From Gemmatimonadaceae bacterium (lineage in GTDB: Bacteria > Gemmatimonadota > Gemmatimonadetes > Gemmatimonadales > Gemmatimonadaceae), in contig JAUQWM010000023.1 of NCBI GenBank assembly GCA_030835125.1, positions 1-64,000 on the forward strand: a stretch of DNA of 64,000 nucleotides, written 5' to 3'. The position numbers and the translations under genes are program-made. Below the pieces are notes generated by a model that searched no databases, had not been told where the DNA came from, and saw only the letters and a list, made by a program, of their open reading frames with translations. Positions 2,964-30,219 of the stretch are shown one piece after another; the first letter of the stretch is position 1, and the number at the start of each line of letters is the position of its first letter.

Positions 2964-4211
2964 ATGCGACCCTGTGTCGGCACGCTCCTCTTCGCCCTCG
3001 GCACCCTGCTCCCGGTGGCGCCGGGCCAGGCCCAGTCGGCTCGCGTCAAGGCGTTCACCGGGCTCACGCTCATCGACGGCACGGCCCGCGCAGGAGTCGC
3101 CAACGCGGTGATCGTGGTCCGCGACGGCCGCGTCGTGGCGGCCGGTCCCGCCACGGGCGTCAGTATCCCGGCCGGCGCCGAGCGGCATGCGCTCGATGGC
3201 AAGGTGGTCATCCCTGGGCTGATCAACGCGCACGGCCATGTGAACACGCCCGCCGACCTGCAGACATACGCGGCATACGGCGTCACCACCGTGGTCAGCC
3301 TTGGCGGGGAGACCGACGCGACCTTCGCCGCGCGGGCAGCACAGGATACCCCTGCGCTCGATCGCGCGCGCGTGTACGTCGCCGGTCCGGTGCTCACACC
3401 GGCAACGCCTGACGAGGCCCGCGCCATGGTCGCCGGGGTCGCGGCGCAGCACGTGGATTGGGTCAAGATCCGCATCGACGACAATCTCGGCACCACCGCA
3501 AAGATGCCGCCCGAGGTGTATCGCGCGGTCATCGATGAATCGCACAGGCGAAACCTCAGGGTCGCTGTCCACCTGTTCTACCTGGATGACGCGAAGTCCC
3601 TGCTGCAGGCCGGCGCGGACTTCATCGCGCACAGCGTGCGCGACCGGGAGGTGGACGCGGTGTTCATGGACGCGCTCAAGGCGTCCGGTCGCTGCTATTC
3701 TCCGACCCTGATGCGCGAAGTCTCGACCTTCGTCTATGAGTCCACGCCCTCGTTCTTCTCCGACCCCGCGTTCCTTGCGCACGCCAACAAGGAGTGGGTG
3801 GCGTCGTTGCGCGAGCCGGCGCGGCAGGAAGCCACGCGCACGAACGTGGCGGCCCAGCGGTACAAGGCAGCGCTGCCGGTCGCCATTCGAAACCTCAAGC
3901 GCCTGTTCGATGCCGGCGTCCCGATCGCGATGGGCACCGACACGGGACCGACGGGCCGCTTTCAAGGCTGGTTCGAGTTGATGGAACTCGAGATGATGGT
4001 GCAGGCCGGGTTCACGCCCGCGCAGGTGATCGCGTCGGCCACGTCGGTCGCGGCGCGATGCATGGGACTCGATCGCGACCTGGGGAGCATCGCCAGCGGG
4101 AAGTGGGCGGACTTCATCGTCCTCGACGCCAATCCGCTGGCCGACATCGCCAACGTGAAGCGCATCTCGTCGGTGTGGATCGCCGGGAACCGGGTGGGCG
4201 CCGGGCGCTGA
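2964..4211 (+). CDS. Secreted metal-dependent amidohydrolase (imidazolonepropionase/prolidase-like)
   Basis: About 415 residues from the ATG that starts a clean signal peptide (MRPCVGTLLFALG followed by an Ala/Gln cleavage region, GQAQ). A TIM-barrel amidohydrolase: metal-binding HGHVN after VVIPGLINA, later His in AVHLFYL and FIAHSV, and Asp in AMGTDTGP. A composite beta-sandwich (C-terminal GKWADFIVLDANPL) is typical of the family. It probably acts in the periplasm on a peptide or cyclic amide, but the substrate cannot be read from the sequence. Confidence 0.85.
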   Translation: MRPCVGTLLFALGTLLPVAPGQAQSARVKAFTGLTLIDGTARAGVANAVIVVRDGRVVAAGPATGVSIPAGAERHALDGKVVIPGLINAHGHVNTPADLQTYAAYGVTTVVSLGGETDATFAARAAQDTPALDRARVYVAGPVLTPATPDEARAMVAGVAAQHVDWVKIRIDDNLGTTAKMPPEVYRAVIDESHRRNLRVAVHLFYLDDAKSLLQAGADFIAHSVRDREVDAVFMDALKASGRCYSPTLMREVSTFVYESTPSFFSDPAFLAHANKEWVASLREPARQEATRTNVAAQRYKAALPVAIRNLKRLFDAGVPIAMGTDTGPTGRFQGWFELMELEMMVQAGFTPAQVIASATSVAARCMGLDRDLGSIASGKWADFIVLDANPLADIANVKRISSVWIAGNRVGAGR

Positions 4212-4261
4212 CCGTCCCTCTGTCGTGATCGCTGCGGGTGCGACCAGATGCCTGACGTGGA

Positions 4262-7200
4262 CTAGACCGCCTCGGCACGCTGGAGACGCTGATAGAGCTC
4301 CGCCGATTCGCGCGCTGGCGCGGAGCCTTCCCGCCGCAGGACCGCCTCGAGCCGGCGGAACTCCCGCAACGCGCCATCGCGGTCCCCTCCCCGCGCCCGT
4401 GCCATCATCAGGGTGCGGTATCCCCCCTCGCTCAACGGGTCCTTCGCCACGAGTTGCTCCGCCGCCGCGATGGCCTCGTCATGGCGACCCGCCGACAGCA
4501 GCGCGGCGCCTGACGCGGCGAGCGCGTCGGCATGCAACCGCGCCAGCCGGTCCCGCACCTCGAAGTGCCAGTCGCCGACCGGCTCCCCGTCGAGGAAGTC
4601 GCCACGGTAGAGTGACAGGGCGTCGCGAACCGCGTCGACCGGGAAGGCGCCGCGGCGTGCCGCGCGCATGGCCTTCGTCACCGCATCCTCGAAGTCGCGC
4701 GCGTCGAACCTGACCGCTCCCTGGACATCGAGGCGGTACCGATCCCGCTCGAACCGCACCCACTCCGCGTGATGGAGCGCGCGACGGAGGTGGTGCAGGG
4801 CCACGTGGAAGTTGTTCCGGACCTGCGCCGACGAGGCCTCGGGCCACAGCGCCGCCCCGACCTGCTCCCGGGTCCGCCCGTCCTCGTGCACCAGCAGGAA
4901 GAGCAACAGCTCCCGGGTCTTGGCGTAGCCCCAGTTCCGCTCAGACAGCGGTGTGCCGTCGACTGCCACCTCGAGGGCGCCGAGTGCACGCACCGCGACT
5001 GCGGGGGCCGGGGTCGTGCTCCGGGGCACGGCCCGCCTCGCGAGTTCCGGGATTTCGTACTCCGCCGTGTCGGTGGACCGGTCGGGCGTCGTGGGTGCGC
5101 CGAGCCGCTCCCCAACCGCGAGCGCGAGGTCGATGGCCGCGTCGCGGTCCATCGCGCGACCCGCGGCATGCAGACGCTCGAACTCCGCGACTCCGAGGGA
5201 GGCGCGTGCGGCATCCATGAACGGCGCGTGCTGCTCCCGATCCACGCTCCACATCAGCGCGCCCATCGCGTCACGAATCGCCTGCGCGGCGCCGTACAGC
5301 CGGGCCGCGTCGGCGGGTTCGTCACCGACCACCGCGCACGAGCCCATGAGTTCCAGCCCGCGCGAGATGAAGAGCAGCAGCGGGTCGCGCCGCATGGTCA
5401 CGAGAGCGTCGCGCAGGAGCGCCCTCGCGCGCGGCCAGTCGCCCGACCGCGCCACGATCGTGGCCAGTTGCTGCAGGGCGATGGCCAGCTCGCGGTCCAG
5501 GCCGAACACCCGCGCCACGCGCACTCCTTCCTCACTTGCCTCGATGGCGCCAGCGAGGTCTCCCCTGGCCATGAGCGCCACGCCATGCAGCAGGTAGTTG
5601 AGGCGCAGGGAATAGAGGTCGTTGTGCTCACGCATCCACGTTCTGGCGCGCAGGAGCACCGCCTCGGTCGCAGGGTCCGCCGTCTGGTTGAGCGCCATCG
5701 CCAGGAAATTCCTCACGTCGGCCAGGAGGACCTGGTCGTCCACCCGGTCAGCGATGACTTCCGCTTCCTCGAGGAGCGCGCGTGCCTCGGCACTGTGCGC
5801 CTGCAGGGCCGCCAGGCTTCCGGCCGAGAAGAGCAGCGCCGCCCGGTCGTGCGTTGGCGCCTGGGCCACCGGGAGCGCCAGTGCGTCGCGAAGCCGCTGG
5901 CGCGCCTCGGGCCACTGCCCGGTCGAGAACCAGAACCAGTGCAGGAGGCCGACGATCCTCACGTGCGTCTGTGGATCGCCTTCACGACTCCACGCGAGGG
6001 CATACCGGAGGTTGTCGAGTTCCGGGAGCAGGCGTGCCAGCCAGGCCGGCCGCTGCGTGGTGCGGAAGTGCGGTGCTGCTTCGCTCGCGAGCGCGCCGAA
6101 CAGTTCGGCGTGCAACCTCGCCCGCGACTCGACCTCGCCGCACTCGGCGAGTCGCTCGCTCGCGTACTCGCGAACGGTCTCGAGCAGCCGGTAGCGCGCC
6201 AGCCCTGACGACTCGATGACATCCACGAGCGACTGGTCGACGAGGGCCGAGAGGATGTCGAGCACGTCGTCGGCCGCCACCGGGTCACCGGCGCACACGA
6301 ATTCCGCCGCCTCGAGCGTGAAGCTCCCGCGGAACGCCGCCAGGCGGGCGAAGACGCGACGTTCCTGCGCCTCGAGCAGGCCATAGCTCCAGTCCATGGC
6401 CGCGCGCAGCGTCTGGTGGCGCGGCAAGGCGGCCCGATTCCCGGTCGACAGCAGGCGGAACCGGTCGTCGAGGCGGGCCGCGATCTGCTCCGGGGTCAGG
6501 ACACGGAGCCGCGCCGCCGCCAGTTCGAGGGCCAGCGGCAGGCCGTCCAGCCGGGCGCAGACCTGTTCCACCGCCTGGCGATTCGCACTCGTCAGGCGGA
6601 ACGCCGGTTGCACCGCGCGGGCCGATTGCACGAACAGCTGCACCGCTTCCGACGCGTTCGCGGCGTCGCCTCCGCTCGCCCGTTGCGACAGCGGGGGCAC
6701 GAGCCATGCCGTTTCGCCGGCGACGCCCAGCGCCGACCGGCTGGTCACCACGATCCGGAGCGCCGGAGCACCGCGGAGGAGGCCGTCGACGAACGCCGCG
6801 CACGCGTCGACGAGGTGTTCGGCGTTGTCGAGGACAAGGAGGAACCGTCGGTCACCCAGCAGCGAGACCAGCCGCTCGAGCGCCGGGACGTCGGCCTCGT
6901 CGCGGAGACCCATCGCCGCAAGCACCGCATCGCCCACCAGTGCCGGATCCAGCACCGGGGCGAGTTCGACCCAGGCACCCGCCAGCCCGGAGGCCGCGAC
7001 TTCGCGTGTCACGGCCTCGAGCGCGAGACGCGTCTTGCCACTGCCCCCAGCGCCAGTGAGCGTGAGCAGTCGCGTGGAGGCGAGGGCCGCGCGGATGGCG
7101 GCGATCTCATGGTCCCGGCCGATGAAGGCCGTGAGGGGTGCAGGCGCTCCACGGAGCAGTGCAGAAGCCTGTTCCGTGGCTTGTCCTGATGGCGTGGAGG

Positions 7201-11943: not shown

Positions 11944-12771
11944 ATGCGTTGGCAGGATCTCAAGCGCAGCAGCAACGTCCAGGACCGCCGCGGCATGCGA
12001 GGCGGCCTTCCCGTCACGGGCGGGCTCGGACTCGTCGTCGTCCTCATCGTTGCACTGGTCACCGGGGTGAACCCGCTCACCCTGCTCGAGGGCGGTGGCA
12101 CGGCACCGGGCACGGAGGTGGCGGGCCCACCGGGAGAGGATCCCATGCGCGACTTCATCTCGGCGGTGCTCGGCAGCACCGAGGAGACCTGGGGATCGCT
12201 CTTCTCGGCTTCGGGGCAGGCGTATCGCGAACCGGCGCTCGTGATCTTCAGCGGTGCGACGCAGTCCGGCTGCGGCGTCGGCCAGTCGGCGATGGGGCCG
12301 TTCTACTGCCCGAACGACCAGACGGTGTACATCGACCTTTCCTTCTATGACGACCTCCGGAGCCGCTTCCAGGCGCCCGGAGACTTCGCCCAGGCCTATG
12401 TGATCGCGCACGAGGTGGGTCACCACGTGCAGAACCTGCTGGGCACGATGGACCAGGTTCACCAGGCGCGGGGCTCGCAGGACGAGGTGGCGGCGAACGC
12501 GATGTCCGTGCGACTCGAACTCCAGGCCGACTGCTACGCGGGGCTGTGGGCGCACCACGCCGAGCGCGCGCGGGCGATCCTGGAATCGGGCGACGTCGAG
12601 GAGGCACTGGGCGCCGCGAGCGCGATCGGTGACGACCGGATCCAGCGACAGACGCAGGGGACCATCGTCCCCGAGAGCTTCACCCACGGCACGTCGGCGC
12701 AACGGGTGGAGTGGTTCCGCCGTGGGCTGCAGCAGGGCACCACCAGCGCCTGCAATACGTTCGACCGGTAG
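11944..12771 (+). CDS. YpfJ/KPN_02809-family neutral zinc metallopeptidase
   Basis: 275 residues. A membrane helix near residues 27-43 follows a short basic N-terminus (MRWQDLKRSSNVQDRRG), a hallmark of the family. Metallopeptidase signature HEVGHH (HExxH) is in the middle, with downstream RLELQADCYAGLWAHH providing the third ligand region. The two Cys around SGCGVGQSAMGPFYCP are conserved in the family. The active domain is predicted outside the cytoplasm. Physiological substrate is unknown. Confidence 0.88.
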   Translation: MRWQDLKRSSNVQDRRGMRGGLPVTGGLGLVVVLIVALVTGVNPLTLLEGGGTAPGTEVAGPPGEDPMRDFISAVLGSTEETWGSLFSASGQAYREPALVIFSGATQSGCGVGQSAMGPFYCPNDQTVYIDLSFYDDLRSRFQAPGDFAQAYVIAHEVGHHVQNLLGTMDQVHQARGSQDEVAANAMSVRLELQADCYAGLWAHHAERARAILESGDVEEALGAASAIGDDRIQRQTQGTIVPESFTHGTSAQRVEWFRRGLQQGTTSACNTFDR

Positions 12772-12890
12772 CTGGGCGGGATAGATCCCCTGGGACGGAC
12801 GGCCTGAACCGATTGCCGCCCACCCGGCGCCGGGGCATACTCAAGCGTCGAGCAGTATCCGCAACTCTCTGATGAATGGAGTCTATCACC

Positions 12891-13286
12891 ATGAAAGCGG
12901 TCTCCCGCGCGCTCATTGCGCTCACCATGCTGGCGGTCCTGGTCGTGCCCGCCGCCGCGCAGAACGCGCCGAAGCTGGACCTCACCGGCAGTTGGGCCTT
13001 CACGGTGGTCTATGAAGGCGGATCGGGTTCACCGACCGTCACGCTGACCCAGAAAGGCGACTCGCTGACCGGACGCTACAGCTCCCAGGTCTTTGGTGAA
13101 CTCGAGGTCAAGGGGAGCATCAAGGGCGCGGAATTCTCGTTTGGCTTCACGACGGCCGCCGGTGGCGACTCGTTCTCCATGACGTTCACGGGCACGCAGG
13201 AGAATGCCGATGCGCTGAAGGGCTCGGTGAGCATGGGTGAGATGGGGTCCGGCACCTTCACGGCGAAGCGAAACAAGAGCCCGTAA
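12891..13286 (+). CDS. Small secreted beta-rich protein (paralogue of 33852-34235)
   Basis: 131 residues with a signal peptide (ALTMLAVLVVPAAAQ). The mature part reads LDLTGSWAFTVVYEGG, VTLTQKGDSLTGRYSS, GELEVKGSIKG and GTFTAKRN, a repeating strand pattern that suggests a small beta-barrel or lipocalin-like sandwich. The same GxW...LxQxGDSLxGRY...GxLEVxGxxKG framework appears in the gene at 33852. No catalytic residues are apparent; a periplasmic binding role is plausible. Single gene, start chosen at the ATG that begins the signal peptide. Confidence 0.75.
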   Translation: MKAVSRALIALTMLAVLVVPAAAQNAPKLDLTGSWAFTVVYEGGSGSPTVTLTQKGDSLTGRYSSQVFGELEVKGSIKGAEFSFGFTTAAGGDSFSMTFTGTQENADALKGSVSMGEMGSGTFTAKRNKSP

Positions 13287-13342
13287 GCCGGCAGCGGCGA
13301 GCGCGGGATCCCGAACACTGGCATGGTCGTGTCCGGGGTCCC

Positions 13343-14521
13343 TCAGAGGTTGCGAGCCGCCTCCCTCGCGCACTCGGCCAGCACGGCGGCACCGACGAAG
13401 ATGCTCGCCTCGGCCGCGACGAACCCCGGACTGTGTGCCGGCGCCGGTGATCCGCCGGGCTCCCGTGCGCCGATGCGCAGGAAGCAGCCGGGGATGTGTT
13501 CCATGTAGCAGGCGAAGTCCTCGCCGCCCATGTTCGTCACACCGAACGGCACTACGCTCCCGGTGCCCAGCACCCGCTCGGCGGCCGCACGGGCCCAGCG
13601 CGCCTCACGGGCGGGATTGACGATCGGCGGCGGGCCACGCTCGATCGTCACCAGCGCGGACGCCCCGTGCGCTGCCGCGACCGCCGTGGCGACGGCCCCG
13701 ACCTCGTCGTGCAGCAGGCGGCGCACGTCGGGGTGCATCGCCCGCAGCGTGCCGGAGAGGTCCACCCGTTCCGGGATCACGTTAGGCGCACTGCCACCGT
13801 GGATCGAACCGACGGAGACCACCGCGGCCGCGCCGGGATCCAGCCGCCGCGAGACGATGGTCTGCAGCGCCAGCACGATCGCCGATGCCGCCACGACGGG
13901 GTCCACCCCCTCGTGCGGGCGGGCCCCGTGCGCCCCCTTCCCCTGGACGACGATCGAGAATGCGTCGGCCGACGCCGCCAGCGGCCCGGCCTCGGCCACG
14001 ACCTGCCCCACCGGGAAGCGCCGGTCCACGTGACCGCCGAAGATCGCCGAGACGCCATCCAGGGCGCCGCTCGCCAGGATCGCCGCCGCCCCCGCGCCCA
14101 CTTCCTCCGCGGGCTGGAGCACGATCACGACGTCGCCTCGCGCCGGCGCGCGCACCAGCAGCATCGCCGCACCCACCGCCCAGGTCGCGTGCACGTCGTG
14201 GCCGCACGCGTGCATGACCCCGTCGACCTCCGACGCGAAGGGAAGGCCCGTCGCCTCCTGGATCGGCAGCGCGTCGATGTCGCCGCGGACGGCGACCACC
14301 GGCGCCGCCGGGTCCGTCCCGCGCACCCGGGCCACGACGCCGGTTCCCGCGACACGCCGGACCTCGGAGAGCCCGAGCTCGCCTAGCGCCTCCTCGAGCC
14401 GCGCGGCGGTGCGCTCCTCCTTCCAGGAGAGCTCCGGGTGCCGGTGGAGGGCGCGTCGGAGGCTGACGAGCCGCTCACGCTCGTCGTCCGTGAAGTGCCG
14501 CTCTGCCGAGTCCGGGGACAT
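13343..14521 (-). CDS. M20 family amidohydrolase (N-acyl-amino-acid deacylase type)
   Basis: 392 residues from ATG at 14521; frame extension further upstream only translates tandem repeat DNA, so it was rejected. Family features: MHACGHDVHATWAVGA (metal-binding His/Asp), QPAEEVGAGAAAIL (catalytic Glu pair), FGGHVDRRFPVG, GAHGARPHEGVDP in the lid/dimer domain, and NMGGEDFACY near the C-terminus. M20D members hydrolyse N-acyl amino acids or hippurate. It follows a racemase and a GNAT gene on the same strand, fitting the L-desuccinylase step of the known N-succinylamino-acid pathway. Confidence 0.85.
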   Translation of the reverse strand: MSPDSAERHFTDDERERLVSLRRALHRHPELSWKEERTAARLEEALGELGLSEVRRVAGTGVVARVRGTDPAAPVVAVRGDIDALPIQEATGLPFASEVDGVMHACGHDVHATWAVGAAMLLVRAPARGDVVIVLQPAEEVGAGAAAILASGALDGVSAIFGGHVDRRFPVGQVVAEAGPLAASADAFSIVVQGKGAHGARPHEGVDPVVAASAIVLALQTIVSRRLDPGAAAVVSVGSIHGGSAPNVIPERVDLSGTLRAMHPDVRRLLHDEVGAVATAVAAAHGASALVTIERGPPPIVNPAREARWARAAAERVLGTGSVVPFGVTNMGGEDFACYMEHIPGCFLRIGAREPGGSPAPAHSPGFVAAEASIFVGAAVLAECAREAARNL

Positions 14522-14527
14522 GAGGGC

Positions 14528-14602
<75 letters not shown>

Positions 14603-14606
<4 letters not shown>

Positions 14607-15718
14607 GAACACCGGTGTTTCCGCACGGTGAGCGCCTCCACCCGTTCCACGTCCACCTCGACTCCCAATCCTGCGGTCTTCGGCACCATGATCGTTCCGT
14701 GATCGGTCATCGTCCATTCCGGCGTGACGATGTCGCGCTCCCAGTAGCGCGCGCTGGGTGAGACGTCACCCGGCTTCACGAAACCGGGGAGCGAGGCCAG
14801 CGCGACGTTATAAGCCCGGCCGATTCCGCTCTCGAGCATGCCGCCACACCAGACCGGGATGCCGTTCGACGCGCAGAAGTCGTGGATGGCCACTGAGGCC
14901 GCCAGTCCGCCGACGCGGCCCGGCTTGATGTTCACGATCCGCCCGCTCCCCAGCGCCACCATGTCCTGCGCCCGCTCGAGCGAGGTGATCGACTCGTCGA
15001 GGCAGATCGGCGTCCGTAGCCGGCGCTGGAGCTCGGCATGCCTGACGAGGTCGTCCCACGCCAGCGGCTGCTCGATCATCATCAGCCCCAGGTCGTCGAG
15101 CGCCGCCAGCGACTCGGCGTTGTCGAGCGTGTAGGCATTGTTGGCGTCGGCCATCAGGGGCGCGTCCGGGCCGGCCGCGGTGCGGGCGGCCCGGACGTAC
15201 TCCACGTCCGCTCCCGGCTGGATCTTGATCTTCACCTTGCGATACCCGCCCGCCAGCGCGGCCATCACCCGGGTGACCAGCGCCTCCGGCGAGGACTGGA
15301 TGCCGAGCGAGATCCCGACCTCGATCTCACGTCGCGTCCCGCCCAGCAATTGCGATAGCGGGAGGCCCAGCATCGTCGCCTCGAGGCCCCACATCCCCAT
15401 CTCCACCGCGGCCTTCGCCATCAGGTGGCCACGGATGTCCTGCTCCAGGTGCGGCAGGACGGCCGGTGCCTCGATCTCATGGCCGAGAACCCGCGGCGCC
15501 AGCCACTCGGTGATCGCGTGCCAGGCGGTATCGATCGTCTCCGGCGAGTAGTTGGGCGTCTCGCCCGCCACGCATTCGCTCCAGGCCACCGCCCCGGACA
15601 CGTCCCGCAATTCGAGCAGCGCGATCCGCCGCTCGGACACCACGCCTGACGAGATCCGGAATGGTTCCTTGAGCGGGAGCCGGATCTCGCGCAGGGTGAT
15701 CGTTTCGAGTCGGATCAT
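14603..15718 (-). CDS. o-Succinylbenzoate synthase / N-succinylamino-acid racemase (enolase superfamily)
   Basis: 371 residues from the ATG at 15718 (ATGA overlap with the GNAT gene). All enolase-superfamily residues for OSBS/NSAR are present: KVKIKIQPG (K163, K165), MADANNAY (D191), IEQPLAWDD (E216), CLDES (D241) and NIKPGRVGG (K265). The numbering is close to that of the Amycolatopsis enzyme. OSBS makes the menaquinone precursor; the same fold also racemises N-succinylamino acids. The flanking GNAT and M20 deacylase genes favour the racemase role, but a UbiA/MenA gene at 41932 keeps menaquinone synthesis possible. The last codon overlaps a 7-bp repeat array. Confidence 0.85.
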
Positions 15719-16524
15719 GCGCTTGCTGGTCCGCGGGGTTCGAGTCGGTAGAACGGCAGGCCGCCGGAGGGCCGGGTGAACGCCGTCACAACGTAGCCCG
15801 CGGAGAGCCACGCCGTCATGACCTCGCGGATGGCGAGCCGCCAGCGCATCGCGAACGTCCGCCCGAGCGACTGAATGGCGCCGAGGTCCGTCGGAACCTG
15901 GACGCCGATCGCCGGCGGGCGTTGCCCGAAGGCAGGGAGGAGTGCCGTCGTTGGCAGGCCATCGACGCCGAGCGGATTCGCCAGGGGACCCTCACCACGG
16001 TCGGCGGGCCTCGAATCCGGCCTCGCAACGTCGGTCAGCTTCCACAGAACCACGAACCGGTCGGTCGGGAGTGACCCGTGCAGCGTGCTTCCCGTGTTCG
16101 ACCCGTACATGTCGACCACGTACTCGACCGGCACGGCCCCGAGGCGGTTGATGTTGAAGTGCGCATTGCCCGCCTGGAGCGGGTCGAAGGTCCAGAGCAT
16201 CGAACGCACCCCGAGGGCAACCACCTTGTCGCGCTGGAAGGCCTTGAGTTGCTCGCCGATCCCCTGGCCACGCAGCACATGCTTTACCGCGAGCATGTCC
16301 GACCAGTGCACGAGTTCCCCGTCGCGAACGCCTGTGAGCCCGAAGACGAAGCCGACCATTTCATCATTGTCATTGAACGCACCGGCGGCGACCCCGCCGA
16401 TCTTCTGCGTGACTCGCAGGATGGCCGTGGGCACACGTTCCGAGAACCCGGCGCCCCAGGTCTCCTCCTGCAGGGCGACACAGGCGGCGTAGTCGTCGAG
16501 CGAACTGAGGTCGCGAATCTTCAA
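15715..16524 (-). CDS. GNAT-family acyltransferase (COG3375-like)
   Basis: 269 residues, starting at TTG (16524) immediately next to a heptad repeat; no classical ribosome binding site is visible. N-terminal GNAT elements: VALQEETWGAGFSERVP, a strand with MVGFVFGLTG, and the acyl-CoA loop VLRGQGIGEQLKAFQRD (RGxGIG). Then FDPLQAGNAHFNINRLGAVPVEYV, the signature of this predicted acetyltransferase family often found with OSBS/NSAR genes. Proposed role: N-succinylation of amino acids for the downstream racemase. Overlap ATGA with the racemase indicates coupled translation. Confidence 0.82.
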   Translation of the reverse strand: MKIRDLSSLDDYAACVALQEETWGAGFSERVPTAILRVTQKIGGVAAGAFNDNDEMVGFVFGLTGVRDGELVHWSDMLAVKHVLRGQGIGEQLKAFQRDKVVALGVRSMLWTFDPLQAGNAHFNINRLGAVPVEYVVDMYGSNTGSTLHGSLPTDRFVVLWKLTDVARPDSRPADRGEGPLANPLGVDGLPTTALLPAFGQRPPAIGVQVPTDLGAIQSLGRTFAMRWRLAIREVMTAWLSAGYVVTAFTRPSGGLPFYRLEPRGPASA

Positions 16525-24306: not shown

Positions 24307-24540
24307 CTATCTGAGACCAAATGCCTCACCGATCAGAGCGTATAGTCTCTTTGCCGCGCTCTCGTCAAGTTGAATGGTTTGGCTGACCTTCCCCTGGATC
24401 TTTCGCGCCGCAGAACCGCTAGTGTCCAACTGCAGGATTGTTCTTCCGTCTATCTCAAAAACTGTGACCGAACAAGAAACCCCTCCGTGCAGAGTGTGTC
24501 GTCCGCGGTCACCAGATAAGAATTCAGTGATTAGCGCCAT
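24307..24540 (-). CDS. Small conserved protein (77 aa) at the edge of the defence island
   Basis: 77 residues from ATG with AGGAAG upstream. It resembles a widespread short uncharacterised family with a pattern GxHTLHG...LQLDTxGSxxR...GKVSQTIQLDE (here GRHTLHGGVSC, LQLDTSGSAARK, KVSQTIQLDESAAKRL). No function is known to me. Its base composition is AT-richer than the flanks, like the ATPase and methyltransferase genes. Subtracting the IS, it would begin about 180 bp after the 116-aa gene on the same strand, so it may belong to the same transcript. Confidence 0.7.
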   Translation of the reverse strand: MALITEFLSGDRGRHTLHGGVSCSVTVFEIDGRTILQLDTSGSAARKIQGKVSQTIQLDESAAKRLYALIGEAFGLR

Positions 24541-24698
24541 GTCCACTTCCTGGTTGAGATTGATGTATTTCCGAGTCGAATCCTGCTCACGCTGATTGCG
24601 GCGACCTAACCAGACGTTCGGTTTCCTGCCACTTGCGCGAAATCCGAGTCGTGTGCAGCGTGCGCTTACCAGGTGATGCGGAAGGGTAAGCTCCCCCG

Positions 24699-25523
24699 TC
24701 AAGTAGACAGTCGGGAAGTAGACTTTCGAGGTACGTTAGGCCTTGGCAGGAAGGTGAGCGGCGGCACCCGGCCAAGGCTGTCGTGGGGCCGCTCGGTGTT
24801 GTAGGTGGTGAGGAAGTCGCTGCTCACGGTCCGCACATCGTCCAGATGGGTGAACACGTAGGCGTCGAGGACTTCGGTCCGATAGGTCCGGTTGAAGCGC
24901 TCCATGAAGGCGTTCTGCTGCGGCTTCCCAGGTTGGATGTAGCGGACCGCGATCCCGTGGGCTTCGCACCAGGACGTCAAGGCCGTCGAGGTGAGTTCCG
25001 GTCCGTTGTCCATGCGCAGGGCGTGCGGAGCGCCATGCACCGCGCGGAGCTGGTCGAGGAGCGCCACCAAGCGCCCGCTGGGCAGCGACACGCCGATGTC
25101 GATGGCCAGACCCTCACGGTTGCCCTCGTCGATCACGTTCAGGATCCGATAGCGCCGACCGTCGTACAGGGTGTCGCACATGTAGTCGATCGCCCAGGTC
25201 CGGTTCAGCACCGGGGGCGCCTCAAGCGGATGCTGGATCCGTTGAGGCAGCCGGCGCCGCGTGCGCCGCGGCAGGTTGAGCCGGAGGGCGCAGTACACCC
25301 GATGGACGCGCTTGTGATTCCACCCGTGACCGTCGAGCGTCAGGCGGTCAAAGCACTTCCAGAAGCCCCAGCGCGTGCGCTTGGCCACGATCGCCTGCAG
25401 GGCATCGATCACGGGCTGATCCTGGACCAAGCGATCCCGCGGCGGCCGGTAGAACGCCGCCCGCGACAATCGCACCGCCCGACACGCCCGGTGAATCGAC
25501 AGCTGGTGGGGCTGGTCGGTCAT
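24699..25523 (-). CDS. IS3-family transposase, orfB (DDE catalytic part)
   Basis: The frame is open from 25703 and the first ATG is at 25523 (MTDQPHQLSIHRACR). Features: HTH_21-like start, WAIDYMCDTLYDG (first Asp), RMDNGPELTSTALT (second Asp), QNAFMERFNRTYRTEVLD (Glu), and C-terminal YNTERPHDSLGRVPP. These are the rve-domain catalytic residues of IS3 transposases. The overlap of this frame with orfA suggests a programmed -1 frameshift fusion near 25560-25600. A GCCTAACG motif lies in the last codons. Confidence 0.92.
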   Translation of the reverse strand: MTDQPHQLSIHRACRAVRLSRAAFYRPPRDRLVQDQPVIDALQAIVAKRTRWGFWKCFDRLTLDGHGWNHKRVHRVYCALRLNLPRRTRRRLPQRIQHPLEAPPVLNRTWAIDYMCDTLYDGRRYRILNVIDEGNREGLAIDIGVSLPSGRLVALLDQLRAVHGAPHALRMDNGPELTSTALTSWCEAHGIAVRYIQPGKPQQNAFMERFNRTYRTEVLDAYVFTHLDDVRTVSSDFLTTYNTERPHDSLGRVPPLTFLPRPNVPRKSTSRLST

Positions 25524-25555
25524 GATCGCGATGGCCTGCCGCTTCGCGGACGGCG

Positions 25556-25822
25556 TCACAACTTTCGGGAGAGCACGTCTTTGATCGCGGCGTTCTCGAG
25601 CGCGAGTTCCGCGTACATCCGCTTCAACTTGGCGTTCTCCGCCTCCAGTTCTTTCAGGCGGGTCAGATCCTTCACCGTCGCCCCACCATACTTGGATCGC
25701 CACAGGAAGTAGGTCGGGCGGCTAATCCCATGCTTCCGGATGATGTCCGCCACGGGTACGCCGGCCTCGCCCTCCTTCAACACCGCCACGATCTGGGATT
25801 CGGTAAATCGGGACTTCCTCAT
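25556..25822 (-). CDS. IS3-family transposase, orfA (HTH/leucine zipper)
   Basis: 88 residues. Typical IS3 orfA: MRKSRFTESQIVAVLKE, GVPVADIIRKHGISRPTYF (HTH) and YGGATVKDLTRLKELEAENAKLKRM split by a leucine-zipper heptad pattern. It binds the element ends and joins orfB by frameshifting. Confidence 0.92.
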   Translation of the reverse strand: MRKSRFTESQIVAVLKEGEAGVPVADIIRKHGISRPTYFLWRSKYGGATVKDLTRLKELEAENAKLKRMYAELALENAAIKDVLSRKL

Positions 25823-25934
25823 CGGGGAATGCCTCCTGATGGCACCCCGAAAGTCTAAAGCTCAACGGTCGACCTGATAGGGGAGCTTACCGAAGGCCGG
25901 GCGGTTCGGAGCCGGCCTCCCACATCCGTTCGGA

Positions 25935-26285
25935 TTATCGCCTGGTCTTGGTTCGCCTGCGCGAGAGCTTGCGTTCGATCGCCTTCTTTGACTTGGCCAT
26001 CTCGGTGTGCACCACCTCGAAGGTTTGTCGGACTCCATCCCGCACGCCCTGGAGGTATGCCGCTTCAACGATTTGCGTGATTCGGGCGGCTTCGTACAGC
26101 GAGACGCTCGCGGCGATATCCCGAACAGCGTCGCTCACCTGCTGTGAGGCGTAGATCTCAAAAAGCACACCGCCGCGCCCATTCGCATCGTTGCCATCGG
26201 CGGTCGGGAGACCAAGTAACTCGGTTCTGTGCCTCGAGACAGTCTTCGTCCCAGTTGGCGTAGAGGGTGCGCAGTTAGTCGACAT
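25935..26285 (-). CDS. Small protein (116 aa) coupled to the GHKL ATPase
   Basis: 116 residues; ATG at 26285 overlaps the last codons of the ATPase gene by 11 bp, so translation is coupled. Not recognised. The N-terminal third looks disordered (polar, Gly/Asn-rich), then a helical part (EIYASQQVSDAVRDIAASVSLY, split over two helices) and a very basic tail (AKSKKAIERKLSRRRTKTRR). The tail suggests DNA or RNA binding. It may be the accessory subunit of the ATPase; this is inference from overlap only. Confidence 0.7.
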   Translation of the reverse strand: MSTNCAPSTPTGTKTVSRHRTELLGLPTADGNDANGRGGVLFEIYASQQVSDAVRDIAASVSLYEAARITQIVEAAYLQGVRDGVRQTFEVVHTEMAKSKKAIERKLSRRRTKTRR

Positions 26286-28224
26286 CAGCCACCTCACCAA
26301 CCCGGCCAAACTTACTGCCGAGTTCACGCTTGATAGCTTTGTCGATGTGGTACCGAGGAAGAATCGCGGCCGTCAATGCCTCACTGCTCCACAGCTTGTC
26401 TTCGACTTCGGTGTCCGTCCAGTGGGCGCTACCAGCAAGTACACGGCCGGTCATCACCGCCTCGATGAGCTGCTGCGAGAACCACTCCCGTACGCGCTCC
26501 CGAATGTAGAGCTTCGCGGTTTCGTTACCTCGATAGTTCCGCTCCCACCTGGACCGCATGTCGACAAAAACGCGGAAGTCCTCGTTGACCAAGAGCAGGT
26601 TATCGGCGGAAACGAACCTCGCCGCGCGGTCTTCCAAATCGCCAGATTGGCGCGTTTCGTTCTCGATCGAGATAAACTGTACTTCCGGAACCTTGTCGGT
26701 GACTTCCACCTGCTCTGCGATCACTGACGACGCATCAGAATCATCGAGCAGATCGGAATAGAACTTGCTTGCCCGAACGGCCTTTTTCCGTGACTCGCCA
26801 GGTTCACTGACGTCTCCGTCGAAAGACGAGTCACCGGCATCGTTCGCCGATTCACCCGTAGCTGCCTCGGCCGAATCCGACAGGACCCTGTAAGGTCCTT
26901 TCGGCGAACGGCGATAGCGCGAAAGCTTGAACAGGTCGAGGTTCAGTTTGAGGCGCTCGACGATGTTTTTCCGAACATCACCGGCACTTGCTCGAGCTGC
27001 GGCGTCCTGCTGGAGGTCTTCCAGTTGAGGCGGGAGGCTTTCACGGAACTCACGAGCCCACTCCGACCAGGGGAGCGGCCCGCCATCGATCAAGAGACGG
27101 GCCCGCGCAGTATCTGATGTCAATGAGGGATACTTCTTCGAATCGGGTTCCAGAACAAGTACGACCCGTTTGGTCTCAAAGACGACCCCGAACGCGATCA
27201 TCCGTGGATTGGATGTCGCGCCTGTTACCATGTCGTAGAGTTCGTCCTGCCACAACGCGGCCACGATACCCAGATTCGGATAGTGCCCCGACGCCGGGTC
27301 TGTGCCCTCCTTCAGAATGAACCAGTGAGCAACCGCCCCCGTCAGGCGCACAGTGCCGGATGAATTGGAGCTCTGCTGCAACCAGTGCTCAAGTCCGCGA
27401 ATTCGGCGCGGGTCTTCGCGGCCTCCGTCCTCCCTCTCGACTTCGACCCGCAGGTCAACGCCCTTTGGGACCCGGAAAAAACGGCTGTAGAGATACTTGA
27501 ACAGCCATCGCTTCTTTCCAGTAACGCCATCCGGGGCATCAGTGGTATCCTGGCTCTCTGAATTACCGAGGAGAAGCACCTGCGTCCCGTGATCCCGAAT
27601 CTCCGCCGGCAGTTTCGCATTCGCTACGCGAGCCCAAAGCGAGAACTGTCCAGCTGAATACTGCTGCTTGATCCCGTACTTCCGAGTATTCGGATCGAGC
27701 CACAAATGGACGAGAGCACCGTCCTTCTCGCCGTGTTTCTTCGAGATGTACACCATCCCGATCTTGTTGAGGGGGAGAGCCGAGATCTTGGCGCCCACTC
27801 CATAGTTGAATGCGTTGCCCTGCCGCCGGCCGCTCGCAGACAGGCGGTTGATATGGTCAACCATCTCAGGCCCCGTCATGCCGATGCCTGTGTCGGTGAG
27901 TACGAGCTTCTTGACGCCGTCCTTAACCTGATAATTCCACGTCACAGCACACTGACTCCCGTCCTCTGCGGCAATCAGGTCCTCCGCAGCCTGGATGCTG
28001 TTCTTCGTGAGCTCCCGAACAAACTGCGCTCGAGCGCAATCGGCATGGAGCCGGTCGACGAGGAAGGTCATGTCGTCAACCGTCATTTCGTGAGTGCGGG
28101 TGTCTTCGCGCACCGTCATTGAGGTTTCCTCGTTCCCAGCGTATTCACTCGGATACGTGATTTCGCCGTTCGCAACCCGCGAGCGCAGGCGACGCTCGCT
28201 CCTCTTTCTTCTTGTGGTCGTCAT
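26275..28224 (-). CDS. MutL/MORC-type GHKL (Hsp90-like) ATPase of an R-M-like system
   Basis: 649 residues, ATG with GAGGAA six bases upstream. GHKL motifs: N-box FVRELTKNSIQAAED (E71, N75), G1 LTDTGIGMTGPE (D111), G2 FNYGVGAKISAL (about 140-150). The remaining ~480 residues are not recognised; they contain a Ser/Asp-rich acidic linker near residues 440-470. Such MutL/MORC-like ATPases were described beside C5 methylases and Vsr nucleases in predicted restriction-modification systems (Iyer and colleagues). It is divergent from the Dcm/Vsr pair and coupled to the 116-aa gene. Composition is AT-richer than flanks, a sign of transfer. Confidence 0.85.
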   Translation of the reverse strand: MTTTRRKRSERRLRSRVANGEITYPSEYAGNEETSMTVREDTRTHEMTVDDMTFLVDRLHADCARAQFVRELTKNSIQAAEDLIAAEDGSQCAVTWNYQVKDGVKKLVLTDTGIGMTGPEMVDHINRLSASGRRQGNAFNYGVGAKISALPLNKIGMVYISKKHGEKDGALVHLWLDPNTRKYGIKQQYSAGQFSLWARVANAKLPAEIRDHGTQVLLLGNSESQDTTDAPDGVTGKKRWLFKYLYSRFFRVPKGVDLRVEVEREDGGREDPRRIRGLEHWLQQSSNSSGTVRLTGAVAHWFILKEGTDPASGHYPNLGIVAALWQDELYDMVTGATSNPRMIAFGVVFETKRVVLVLEPDSKKYPSLTSDTARARLLIDGGPLPWSEWAREFRESLPPQLEDLQQDAAARASAGDVRKNIVERLKLNLDLFKLSRYRRSPKGPYRVLSDSAEAATGESANDAGDSSFDGDVSEPGESRKKAVRASKFYSDLLDDSDASSVIAEQVEVTDKVPEVQFISIENETRQSGDLEDRAARFVSADNLLLVNEDFRVFVDMRSRWERNYRGNETAKLYIRERVREWFSQQLIEAVMTGRVLAGSAHWTDTEVEDKLWSSEALTAAILPRYHIDKAIKRELGSKFGRVGEVADVD

Positions 28225-28664
28225 AATTCCTCGCGCTCAGAGGCAGTAGCCTGGAGCAGGAGTGCTCGTAAATGCCACCGATGCGGGGTCGACAAAAGCG
28301 TCGACGCGGCTGCGATGGCAGTCCGAGCGTGGAAAGTGAGAACTGGGGTCTAAAAGGCCGGTGAAAACGGCCACTGGAACCCGGTGTCGTCGCGGGCTTC
28401 CTGTTCGGCGGGCATGCCGCCCCGGCGCGCCACTGCGCGCGTGTCGTCATAGATCGTCCTCATCGCTGGGGCTGGGCCACGGAGCTGATGCTGGCACCCT
28501 TGAACCACGAACGCGGATCCAAAGACACAGGATGGGCTCGTGATACCTCGAGTGCACGGTGAAATTTACTCGATGCGGCTCTTGGCCGCGCCCCAACTAG
28601 GTAAGTCGGTGCCTGACTGACTTCACTGTGGTGTAACCTGTTGCCATAGAGAGAGTTGCGCGAC
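28225..28664. other. Divergent control region of the defence island
   Basis: No gene seen. It separates the ATPase gene (left) and the Dcm gene (right) and must hold both promoters. A visible element is two copies of the palindrome GTCGAC (28288-28293 and 28300-28305) separated by AAAAGC, a possible operator. A GAGAGAG ribosome binding site lies just before the Dcm ATG. I could not identify -10/-35 boxes with confidence. Confidence 0.45.
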
Positions 28665-29750
28665 ATGTACAAGAGCGTGGAGCTTTTCGCGGGAGCTGGG
28701 GGAATGGCGATAGGCTTAAGTCGAGCCGGCTTCTCCCATGCCGCTCTCGTAGAGTCTGACCCAGCAGCCTTCGCGACGTTGGTGGCAAATGCCGAACTGT
28801 TCGGTGGTGCGGACGACTTCGTCTTCGACGAAGTGCAGAACGTCGACTACAGACAGTACAAAAACGTGGACCTTTTGGCTGCCGGAGCCCCCTGTCAGCC
28901 ATGGTCCCAGGCCGGCAAGCGACTACAGGATCGCGACCATCGAAACCTGTTTCCAGAAGTCTTACGCGCGCAGTCGGAACTTCTCCCGCGCGCAGTTCTG
29001 ATCGAGAATGTGAGAGGGCTCGCAGCGGCCAGGTCAGGGTTATTCGTTGAACGCTTGAGTCTCGCGCTTGAGCATCCCCAATCCGCCGTCGCCGTTGGGC
29101 CAGCTATCTGGCGCGCAGTGCCCGAAGACCTGAGACGTGAACTTGACGCGGCGCCGACCAACAACGTCCGCTACCGCGTTAGGTGGGCAACGCTCCAAGC
29201 CGCTGATTATGGCATCCCACAGATGCGCAGTCGTCTCTTTCTCGTTGCGCTGCGGAATGATGTTGTTGGCGACTGGATTCCACCGGTTCCCACGCACCGC
29301 AGGAAGGGAGTTGCCGGACTGAAGAATCAAGCTAGAGTCGCGACGAATGGTCATCCACTCCTCCCAGGATGGCGAACGGTGCAAGAGGCCATCGGAGACC
29401 TGCCGTCGCCAACTAGGTCGGATGTCGTGAGGCCCTCGTGGCATTTTCACCAGCCTGGAGCACGGAGCTACAACGGACACACTGGTAGCCGACCCGATAG
29501 GCCCGCGAAAACGTTGAAAGCAGGGGTCCATGGCGTCGCTGGGGGTGAGAACACGCTTCGGCTGCGAAACGGGAGAGTGCGGTACTTCACAATCCGAGAA
29601 GCGGCGAGACTCCAAACGTTTCCAGACGCGCACGAGTTCGCAGGCAGCTGGTGCGATGCGGTTCGCCAAGTTGGGAACGCCGTTCCGGTTGTTCTGGCTG
29701 AGGCCGTGGGGAGGAGCATCATGAGTGTACTGACAGAGTCTTCTGTCTAG
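28665..29750 (+). CDS. dcm: C5 cytosine DNA methyltransferase
   Basis: 361 residues from ATG (a TTG nine bases upstream is possible). All catalytic motifs are present: I FAGAGGMAIGLSRAG, IV GAPCQPWS with catalytic Cys about residue 77, VI ENVRG (114-118), VIII IPQMRSRLFLVAL, and X RQVGNAVPVVLAEA at the C-terminus. The target recognition region lies between VIII and IX (about residues 220-290). It protects a host site or makes 5mC; the recognition sequence is unknown. The Vsr-like gene starts one base after its stop. Confidence 0.95.
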   Translation: MYKSVELFAGAGGMAIGLSRAGFSHAALVESDPAAFATLVANAELFGGADDFVFDEVQNVDYRQYKNVDLLAAGAPCQPWSQAGKRLQDRDHRNLFPEVLRAQSELLPRAVLIENVRGLAAARSGLFVERLSLALEHPQSAVAVGPAIWRAVPEDLRRELDAAPTNNVRYRVRWATLQAADYGIPQMRSRLFLVALRNDVVGDWIPPVPTHRRKGVAGLKNQARVATNGHPLLPGWRTVQEAIGDLPSPTRSDVVRPSWHFHQPGARSYNGHTGSRPDRPAKTLKAGVHGVAGGENTLRLRNGRVRYFTIREAARLQTFPDAHEFAGSWCDAVRQVGNAVPVVLAEAVGRSIMSVLTESSV

Positions 29751-29751
29751 C

Positions 29752-30219
29752 GTGGCACACTTGAAAAGACCCAGAAGGCCATACCGGCCTCGAGACAAGG
29801 CCGCCACATCCCGAATCATGTCGTCCGTCAAAGCAAGGGACGGCAAAGCAGAGCTGGCCATACGGTCCGCGCTTTGGAGGCTAGGAATGCGATTCCGTGT
29901 GCACTCGAGCGAACTCATAGGTCGGCCAGACCTGGTCTTCGCGCGTTCCAGAGTAGTGCTGTTCGTTGACGGAGATTTCTGGCACGGTAGGGCGGTGCGG
30001 CTTCACGGAAGCCGCGCTTACCGGTGGCTATTCCGCTCATCAAATCGTGCGTTCTGGGTGAAGAAGATCCGCGAGAACATCCGTCGCGACGATCTGGTTA
30101 CGCGAATGCTACGCGAAGAAGGATGGCGAGTAATTCGACTGTGGGAGAGCAGTGTGTTGCGCGATCCGGCATTGGCGGCCGCACGCGTAGCGTCGGTCAT
30201 TCGCAGTCGCCTGCCATGA
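29752..30219 (+). CDS. Vsr-type endonuclease, zinc-less FVDGDFWHG subfamily
   Basis: 155 residues, GTG start one base after the Dcm stop. Family features: SRIMSSVKARDGKAE near the N-terminus, LGMRFRVHSSELIGRPDLVF with the catalytic Asp, VVLFVDGDFWHG, RAFWVKKIRENIRRDD, and GWRVIRLWES. In E. coli Vsr the centre reads THGCFWH and zinc is bound by Cys/His; here the first Cys is Asp and the later zinc Cys/His are absent. This fits a separate subfamily that may act as the restriction nuclease of the Dcm pair rather than mismatch repair. That function is inference. Confidence 0.85.
   Translation: MAHLKRPRRPYRPRDKAATSRIMSSVKARDGKAELAIRSALWRLGMRFRVHSSELIGRPDLVFARSRVVLFVDGDFWHGRAVRLHGSRAYRWLFRSSNRAFWVKKIRENIRRDDLVTRMLREEGWRVIRLWESSVLRDPALAAARVASVIRSRLP

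What the first reader, a model, noticed from the sequence alone, without database searches (positions are those of the whole stretch)
24307..30219. Compact GHKL-ATPase / Dcm / Vsr-like defence locus without helicase or separate restriction enzyme
Seen: a MutL/MORC-type ATPase (N-box, DTGIGM, GVGAKISAL) coupled by an 11-bp overlap to a 116-aa basic protein; a divergent C5 methyltransferase with all motifs; a Vsr-type nuclease one base after it; a 77-aa conserved protein; AT-richer composition. Known: such ATPases occur in predicted R-M systems with Z1 helicases and nucleases. Here neither helicase nor another nuclease is visible, so the ATPase, the small protein and the Vsr-like nuclease may form the whole effector. 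Inference: a reduced or new restriction system in which the ATPase gates the nuclease.
Basis: partly seen in the sequence, partly recalled or inferred. Interest (0 to 1): 0.78.

Follow-up and report, generated by a model that had tools for sequence, protein, structure and literature searches.

The report
Compact methylase–nuclease–ATPase locus, no helicase
This small genomic island pairs a DNA methylase and a repair-type nuclease with an unnamed ATPase that usually sits alone in other bacteria; the same three genes form a movable cassette in distant planctomycetes, so it may be a stripped-down restriction system, though the ATPase's role is untested.

Summary
The genes are real: a GHKL ATPase (26278-28224 -), a 116-aa helical protein overlapping its end, a C5 methyltransferase with a Vsr-type nuclease one base behind it, and a 77-aa protein. 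No relative of the restriction genes probed (two helicases, Z1, Eco29kI, GIY-YIG, NgoMIV, DUF262) lies on the contig. The ATPase belongs to an unnamed GHKL+S5 family with no nuclease motif, found in more than ten phyla. Of 54 well-flanked homologous loci, 52 lack the methylase and Vsr, and neither small protein accompanies it anywhere, so the five-gene system is rejected. But two Phycisphaerae genomes share exactly one block, C5 methylase + Vsr + this ATPase (3.6 kb, 71% identical), between unrelated flanks, without helicase or restriction enzyme. The window is a separate ATPase lineage with another gene order, so the combination arose at least twice. Best reading: a compact, helicase-less variant of the known MORC/paraMORC restriction kind, with Vsr as the likely nuclease (confidence 0.45). 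Main rival: an orphan methylase-Vsr pair beside a stand-alone ATPase. The small proteins have relatives in other contexts.

The parts
26275..28224 (-). GHKL (HSP90/MutL/MORC-like) ATPase with S5-like middle and an unnamed C-terminal domain, 649 aa; likely DNA-responsive ATP clamp
   Evidence: HATPase_c 1e-4 and HATPase_c_3 in 48 of 49 aligned members; AlphaFold pLDDT 83, Foldseek to HSP90 N+middle domains; 62 genome loci; no PADLOC match, no NCBIfam model above cut-off
25935..26285 (-). 116-aa basic, all-helical small protein overlapping the ATPase gene by 11 bp; lineage-specific partner
   Evidence: single-sequence model, pLDDT 64; long C-terminal helix better predicted; one convincing relative, in G129 (3.7e-10)
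28656..29750 (+). C5-cytosine methyltransferase (ATG start at 28665)
   Evidence: Pfam 7e-55, TIGR00675; nearest kin 40-44% in Vsr-MTase-Eco29kI/GIY-YIG and Vsr-MTase-helicase-GHKL operons
29752..30219 (+). Vsr-like endonuclease without the zinc ligands of E. coli Vsr
   Evidence: Vsr 4e-23, TIGR00632; alignments to 1cw0 and relatives
24307..24540 (-). 77-aa protein of a small family found beside restriction/defence genes elsewhere; not shown to belong to the unit
24685..25891 (.). IS3-family insertion sequence, intruder between the 77-aa gene and the rest
   Evidence: transpos_IS3 5e-57; terminal repeats and GAAG duplication; 50-bp end also at two other places in the genome
28225..28655 (.). 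430-bp divergent intergenic region between the two transcription units
   Evidence: no sigma-70-like site or terminator by consensus scan

Best explanation
A compact, helicase-less variant of the GHKL (MORC/paraMORC) kind of restriction-modification locus. Shown: a C5 methyltransferase, a Vsr-type nuclease and an ATPase of one unnamed GHKL+S5 family are neighbours here, and as a discrete three-gene block in two Phycisphaerae genomes, with no recognised helicase or restriction enzyme. Inferred: the methyltransferase marks host DNA; the ATPase dimerises on ATP into a clamp on DNA and, on unmarked DNA, recruits or licenses the only nuclease present, the Vsr-like protein. The 116-aa helical protein is probably a lineage-specific adaptor of the ATPase. 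The 77-aa gene and the IS3 element are bystanders or late additions.
For: Phycisphaerae L170 and L171 align only over 12149-15725 / 3084-6656 (71.5% DNA identity), the three genes exactly; their flanks are unrelated. ATPase tree: window and Phycisphaerae lineages are separate, so the combination arose at least twice. In both the methylase belongs to the subfamily (40-53%) that elsewhere lies in Vsr-MTase-Eco29kI/GIY-YIG operons or in Vsr-MTase-Mrr/helicase-GHKL operons. ATPase and 116-aa gene overlap by 11 bp and the nuclease starts one base after the methylase. A phage contig carries a distant ATPase overlapping a C5 methylase by one base. Prior report of GHKL-methylase-Vsr neighbourhoods, a minority without helicase (PMC2292703).
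Against: Of 54 ATPase loci with at least 3 kb on both sides, only L025 and L026 have the methylase and Vsr. The other three ATPase-positive genomes of the phylum sample are not among those with a Vsr-like gene. The two halves are divergent transcription units. Gene order differs from Phycisphaerae, whose Vsr differs at the zinc-site positions. Two independent juxtapositions could still reflect defence-island clustering. No experiment; gating is inference.
Confidence: 0.45

Rival explanations
1. Two unrelated modules side by side in a small island: an orphan methylase with its Vsr-like protein, doing very-short-patch repair of deaminated 5mC or acting as a self-stabilising pair as ScmA/VsrA in Caulobacter, and a stand-alone GHKL ATPase gene with a private small partner and its own, unknown (perhaps anti-phage) function.
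For: ATPase without methylase or Vsr in 52 of 54 flanked loci and no neighbour family shared by more than 4 of 73 loci; Vsr absent from the hit list for three ATPase-positive genomes; the closest Vsr and methylase relatives sit together without this ATPase; ScmA/VsrA precedent (PMC12907096).
Against: The exact three-gene block in two Phycisphaerae at unrelated sites is not expected of unrelated neighbours; the Vsr lacks the zinc ligands and T63/H64 of E. coli Vsr, so canonical repair is doubtful.
Confidence: 0.38
2. A decayed type II restriction system: methylase and Vsr are left from a Vsr-MTase-Eco29kI/GIY-YIG or MTase-Mrr-helicase-GHKL operon whose nuclease genes were lost, and the ATPase arrived independently.
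For: Nearest methylase relatives lie in such operons; an IS3 element has landed in the island.
Against: All five ORFs are intact, with no fragment of the probed restriction enzymes or helicases on the contig and no relative of the L177 Eco29kI enzyme elsewhere in the genome; the reduced form recurs in Phycisphaerae.
Confidence: 0.12
3. The ATPase is an HSP90- or RIIA-like chaperone or phage-conflict protein unrelated to DNA restriction.
For: Foldseek matches to HSP90, and to phage RIIA proteins in the viral library; distant relatives in phage contigs.
Against: TM about 0.3-0.37 reflects only the shared GHKL+S5 scaffold; no chaperone family above cut-off.
Confidence: 0.05

Closest known systems
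MORC/paraMORC restriction-modification neighbourhoods (Iyer, Abhiman and Aravind 2008, PMC2292703), e.g. Rhodococcus L179, Deinococcus L182
   Same: GHKL+S5 ATPase with C5 methylase (and Vsr in L179); a minority reported without helicase
   Different: L179 and L182 carry an Mrr-ResIII helicase and a ~190-200-aa gene and their ATPase is of another family (only the GHKL module aligns); none of this in the window
Vsr-MTase-Eco29kI/GIY-YIG type II systems (L177, L178, L180)
   Same: Same methylase subfamily (40-42%) with adjacent Vsr
   Different: No GIY-YIG enzyme in the window; gene order MTase then Vsr
Mza (MzaB GHKL + MzaC Z1) systems, e.g. Acetoanaerobium L136
   Same: A relative of the 77-aa protein lies directly upstream of MzaB-MzaC there
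   Different: Window ATPase does not match MzaB and no Z1 gene is present
Dcm-Vsr repair pair and Caulobacter ScmA/VsrA (PMC12907096)
   Same: Methylase and Vsr-type nuclease without cognate restriction enzyme
   Different: ScmA and VsrA are unlinked; the window Vsr lacks the zinc site of E. coli Vsr; an ATPase is adjacent
GHKL-Shedu VcSduA (PMC12137116)
   Same: GHKL ATPase proposed to control a nuclease; experimentally anti-phage
   Different: Nuclease is fused (DUF4263) there; window ATPase has no nuclease domain

Membership tests
MORC/paraMORC restriction neighbourhood (Iyer 2008) | GHKL ATPase with C-terminal S5-type domain | tested here: met
   motifs invariant in 49 aligned sequences; model matches HSP90 N+middle domains
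MORC/paraMORC restriction neighbourhood (Iyer 2008) | C5 methylase and/or Vsr neighbour | tested here: met
MORC/paraMORC restriction neighbourhood (Iyer 2008) | SFII helicase neighbour (about 70% of published cases) | tested here: not met
   no L179/L182 helicase or Z1 relative on the contig; only generic helicase-domain matches elsewhere in the genome
MORC/paraMORC restriction neighbourhood (Iyer 2008) | RE-fold restriction endonuclease other than Vsr | tested here: not met
   no relative of the REases probed on the contig; a novel or unrelated REase was not excluded
paraMORC3 | C-terminal E-D-ExK nuclease domain | tested here: not met
   no such motif in P0001, a loose one in 5 of 49; no Pfam nuclease
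Mza | MzaB-type GHKL protein | tested here: not met
   no PADLOC match at 0.1; hhalign aligns only the GHKL core
Mza | Z1 protein MzaC | tested here: not met
Canonical Vsr | Catalytic D51/H69-type positions and wedge F67/W68 | tested here: met
   aligned to 1cw0: GRPD, FWH retained
Canonical Vsr | T63/H64 and zinc ligands C66, H71, C73, C117 | tested here: not met
   VDGDFWHG and WESS in place of THGCFWHHH and WECA; residue roles from general knowledge
Eco29kI-type R-M | GIY-YIG endonuclease gene | tested here: not met
   none on the contig, no match in own genome
Shedu (GHKL type) | DUF4263 nuclease domain | tested here: not met
   no Pfam match in any of the 49 aligned sequences
Restriction system in general | Cuts unmodified DNA and modifies its own | not testable with these tools
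   needs experiment

The most novel reading that the evidence does not exclude
A minimal restriction type in which a GHKL ATPase clamp replaces both helicase and restriction enzyme and licenses a Vsr-type repair nuclease to cut DNA lacking the partner methylase's mark; assembled independently at least twice, by an ATPase family that otherwise works alone.
Probability: 0.25. Interest if true: 0.72.

Novelty: new variant of a known kind. Interest (0 to 1): 0.45.

Why it matters
It would tie Vsr proteins, thought of as repair enzymes, to ATP-controlled DNA restriction with three genes, and would give a small model for how MORC-type ATPases sense DNA modification. Even if the trio is fortuitous, the survey exposes an unnamed, widely scattered stand-alone GHKL ATPase family not covered by a specific model in Pfam, NCBIfam or PADLOC, with no assigned function.

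Tried and rejected
Five-gene system: rejected, neither small protein accompanies the ATPase elsewhere. Nuclease domain in the ATPase C-terminus: no motif, no Pfam hit. Known named system: no PADLOC match for the ATPase, 116-aa or 77-aa proteins; two of 49 aligned ATPases weakly match MzaB. Prophage origin: no phage-collection match and no PHROG for the ATPase. Orthologous transfer of the trio between Phycisphaerae and window: rejected by ATPase tree and gene order; the methylase tree does not group the two either, but is poorly resolved. CCGCGG avoidance as a hint of specificity: none (97 seen, 96 expected). Empty-site search in relatives: the nearest flank homologue (G048) carried only the DUF4126 gene of the four flank genes probed. 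Rfam and tRNA scans: nothing.

Full report
Observation. The reported genes are present with the stated spacings. Pfam, NCBIfam and PADLOC identify the C5 methyltransferase and Vsr; the ATPase matches HATPase_c only weakly by itself (1.3e-4) but 48 of the 49 aligned members match HATPase_c_3. The composition dip is real. Without it the 77-aa gene would lie about 190 bp downstream of the 116-aa gene, same strand.

The ATPase. tblastn, phylum and collection searches gave 62 genome loci in more than ten phyla, plus plasmid and phage relatives. It occurs in 4 of 395 genomes sampled from the window's phylum. The model (pLDDT 83) resembles HSP90 N+middle domains followed by a C-terminal domain with conserved W517, D532, R533, N547, D549, E588 and W602 (column majority; position 517 is F in the window) but no nuclease motif. 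Only the GHKL core aligns with MzaB or with the L179 MORC-type ATPase. I take it as an unnamed paraMORC-like family.

Neighbourhoods. Across 73 loci no neighbouring family occurs in more than four; immediate neighbours are diverse, some of them defence genes (HamA, DUF5677, OLD-like). Methylase and Vsr relatives occur only at L025 and L026, 2 of 54 loci with 3 kb on both sides. Other ATPase-positive genomes of the phylum sample (G006, G074, G250) are not among the 79 with a Vsr-like gene. So the family usually works without them.

The recurring trio. Larger stretches of the two Phycisphaerae genomes align only over the block methylase (+) / Vsr (-) / ATPase (+), 3.6 kb at 71.5% identity; one is flanked by a peptidase-like and a cobalamin adenosyltransferase-like gene, the other by genes that look prophage-derived and an MscL-like gene, named from sequence. 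Moving or being kept as a unit suggests joint function. The window ATPase is a separate lineage, its methylase does not group with theirs in a poorly resolved tree, and its order differs, so the combination probably arose twice. Chance estimate (inference): about 0.3 Vsr hits per 4-Mb genome in the phylum sample gives roughly 0.05 expected for 54 loci; clustering of defence genes could raise this tenfold, and the window itself was preselected, so significance is modest.

Methylase and Vsr. Nearest methylase kin (40-44%) lie in Vsr-MTase-Eco29kI/GIY-YIG operons (L177, L178, L180) or with an Mrr-ResIII helicase and a GHKL ATPase (L179, L182). The nine closest Vsr relatives in the phylum sit near other C5 methylases, several with a NgoMIV-like gene (recognised from sequence). 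The window Vsr keeps GRPD and FWH but lacks T63/H64 and the zinc ligands of E. coli Vsr.

Small proteins. The 116-aa protein's one convincing relative (3.7e-10, G129; one further match at 3e-6 lies inside a 698-aa frame) sits in an array of spaced direct repeats that look like integron attC sites. The 77-aa family has relatives directly upstream of MzaB-MzaC (L136), beside a DUF262-type gene (L135; named from sequence, PADLOC HEC-06) and in a second such array (L169).

Literature. Iyer et al. 2008 described GHKL-methylase-Vsr neighbourhoods, a minority without helicase, and stand-alone paraMORC3 genes that carry nuclease domains. Bellieny-Rabelo et al. 2021 link GHKL genes with C5 methylases and Vsr. 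VcSduA shows a GHKL-nuclease fusion acting against phage. ScmA/VsrA shows a Vsr-like protein penalising loss of a solitary methylase.

Conclusion. Three-gene compact unit 0.45; adjacent independent modules 0.38; decayed system 0.12; chaperone or phage-conflict protein 0.05. The five-gene form is rejected. Gating of Vsr by the ATPase is untested.

Noticed in passing
window 24685-25891: Intact IS3 element with GAAG target duplication; a 50-bp end also occurs on contigs C16 and C59 of the same genome, perhaps collapsed copies.
   Followed up: partly
L136 7965-12459: A relative of the 77-aa protein sits between a small HTH-like gene and an MzaB-MzaC (GHKL-Z1) pair, suggesting an unannotated small accessory of Mza systems.
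   Followed up: partly
L131 5448-12498 and L169 1-12000: Arrays of short genes with attC-like repeats (9-25 copies) in genomes of the window's phylum; each carries a relative of one of the window's small proteins.
   Followed up: partly
L122-L130: Vsr-like proteins with VDGD(Y/F)WH-type motifs instead of the zinc site sit near C5 methylases, several with a NgoMIV-like gene; a possible zinc-less Vsr subfamily.
   Followed up: partly
L081 9813-10600: Phage contig in which a distant GHKL ATPase gene overlaps a C5 methylase gene by one base.
   Followed up: no
L007 and L008, 9998-16500: Distant ATPase relatives on alphaproteobacterial plasmids precede an ATP-binding protein + UvrD-helicase pair that looks Gabija-like, with a small ORF upstream.
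   Followed up: no
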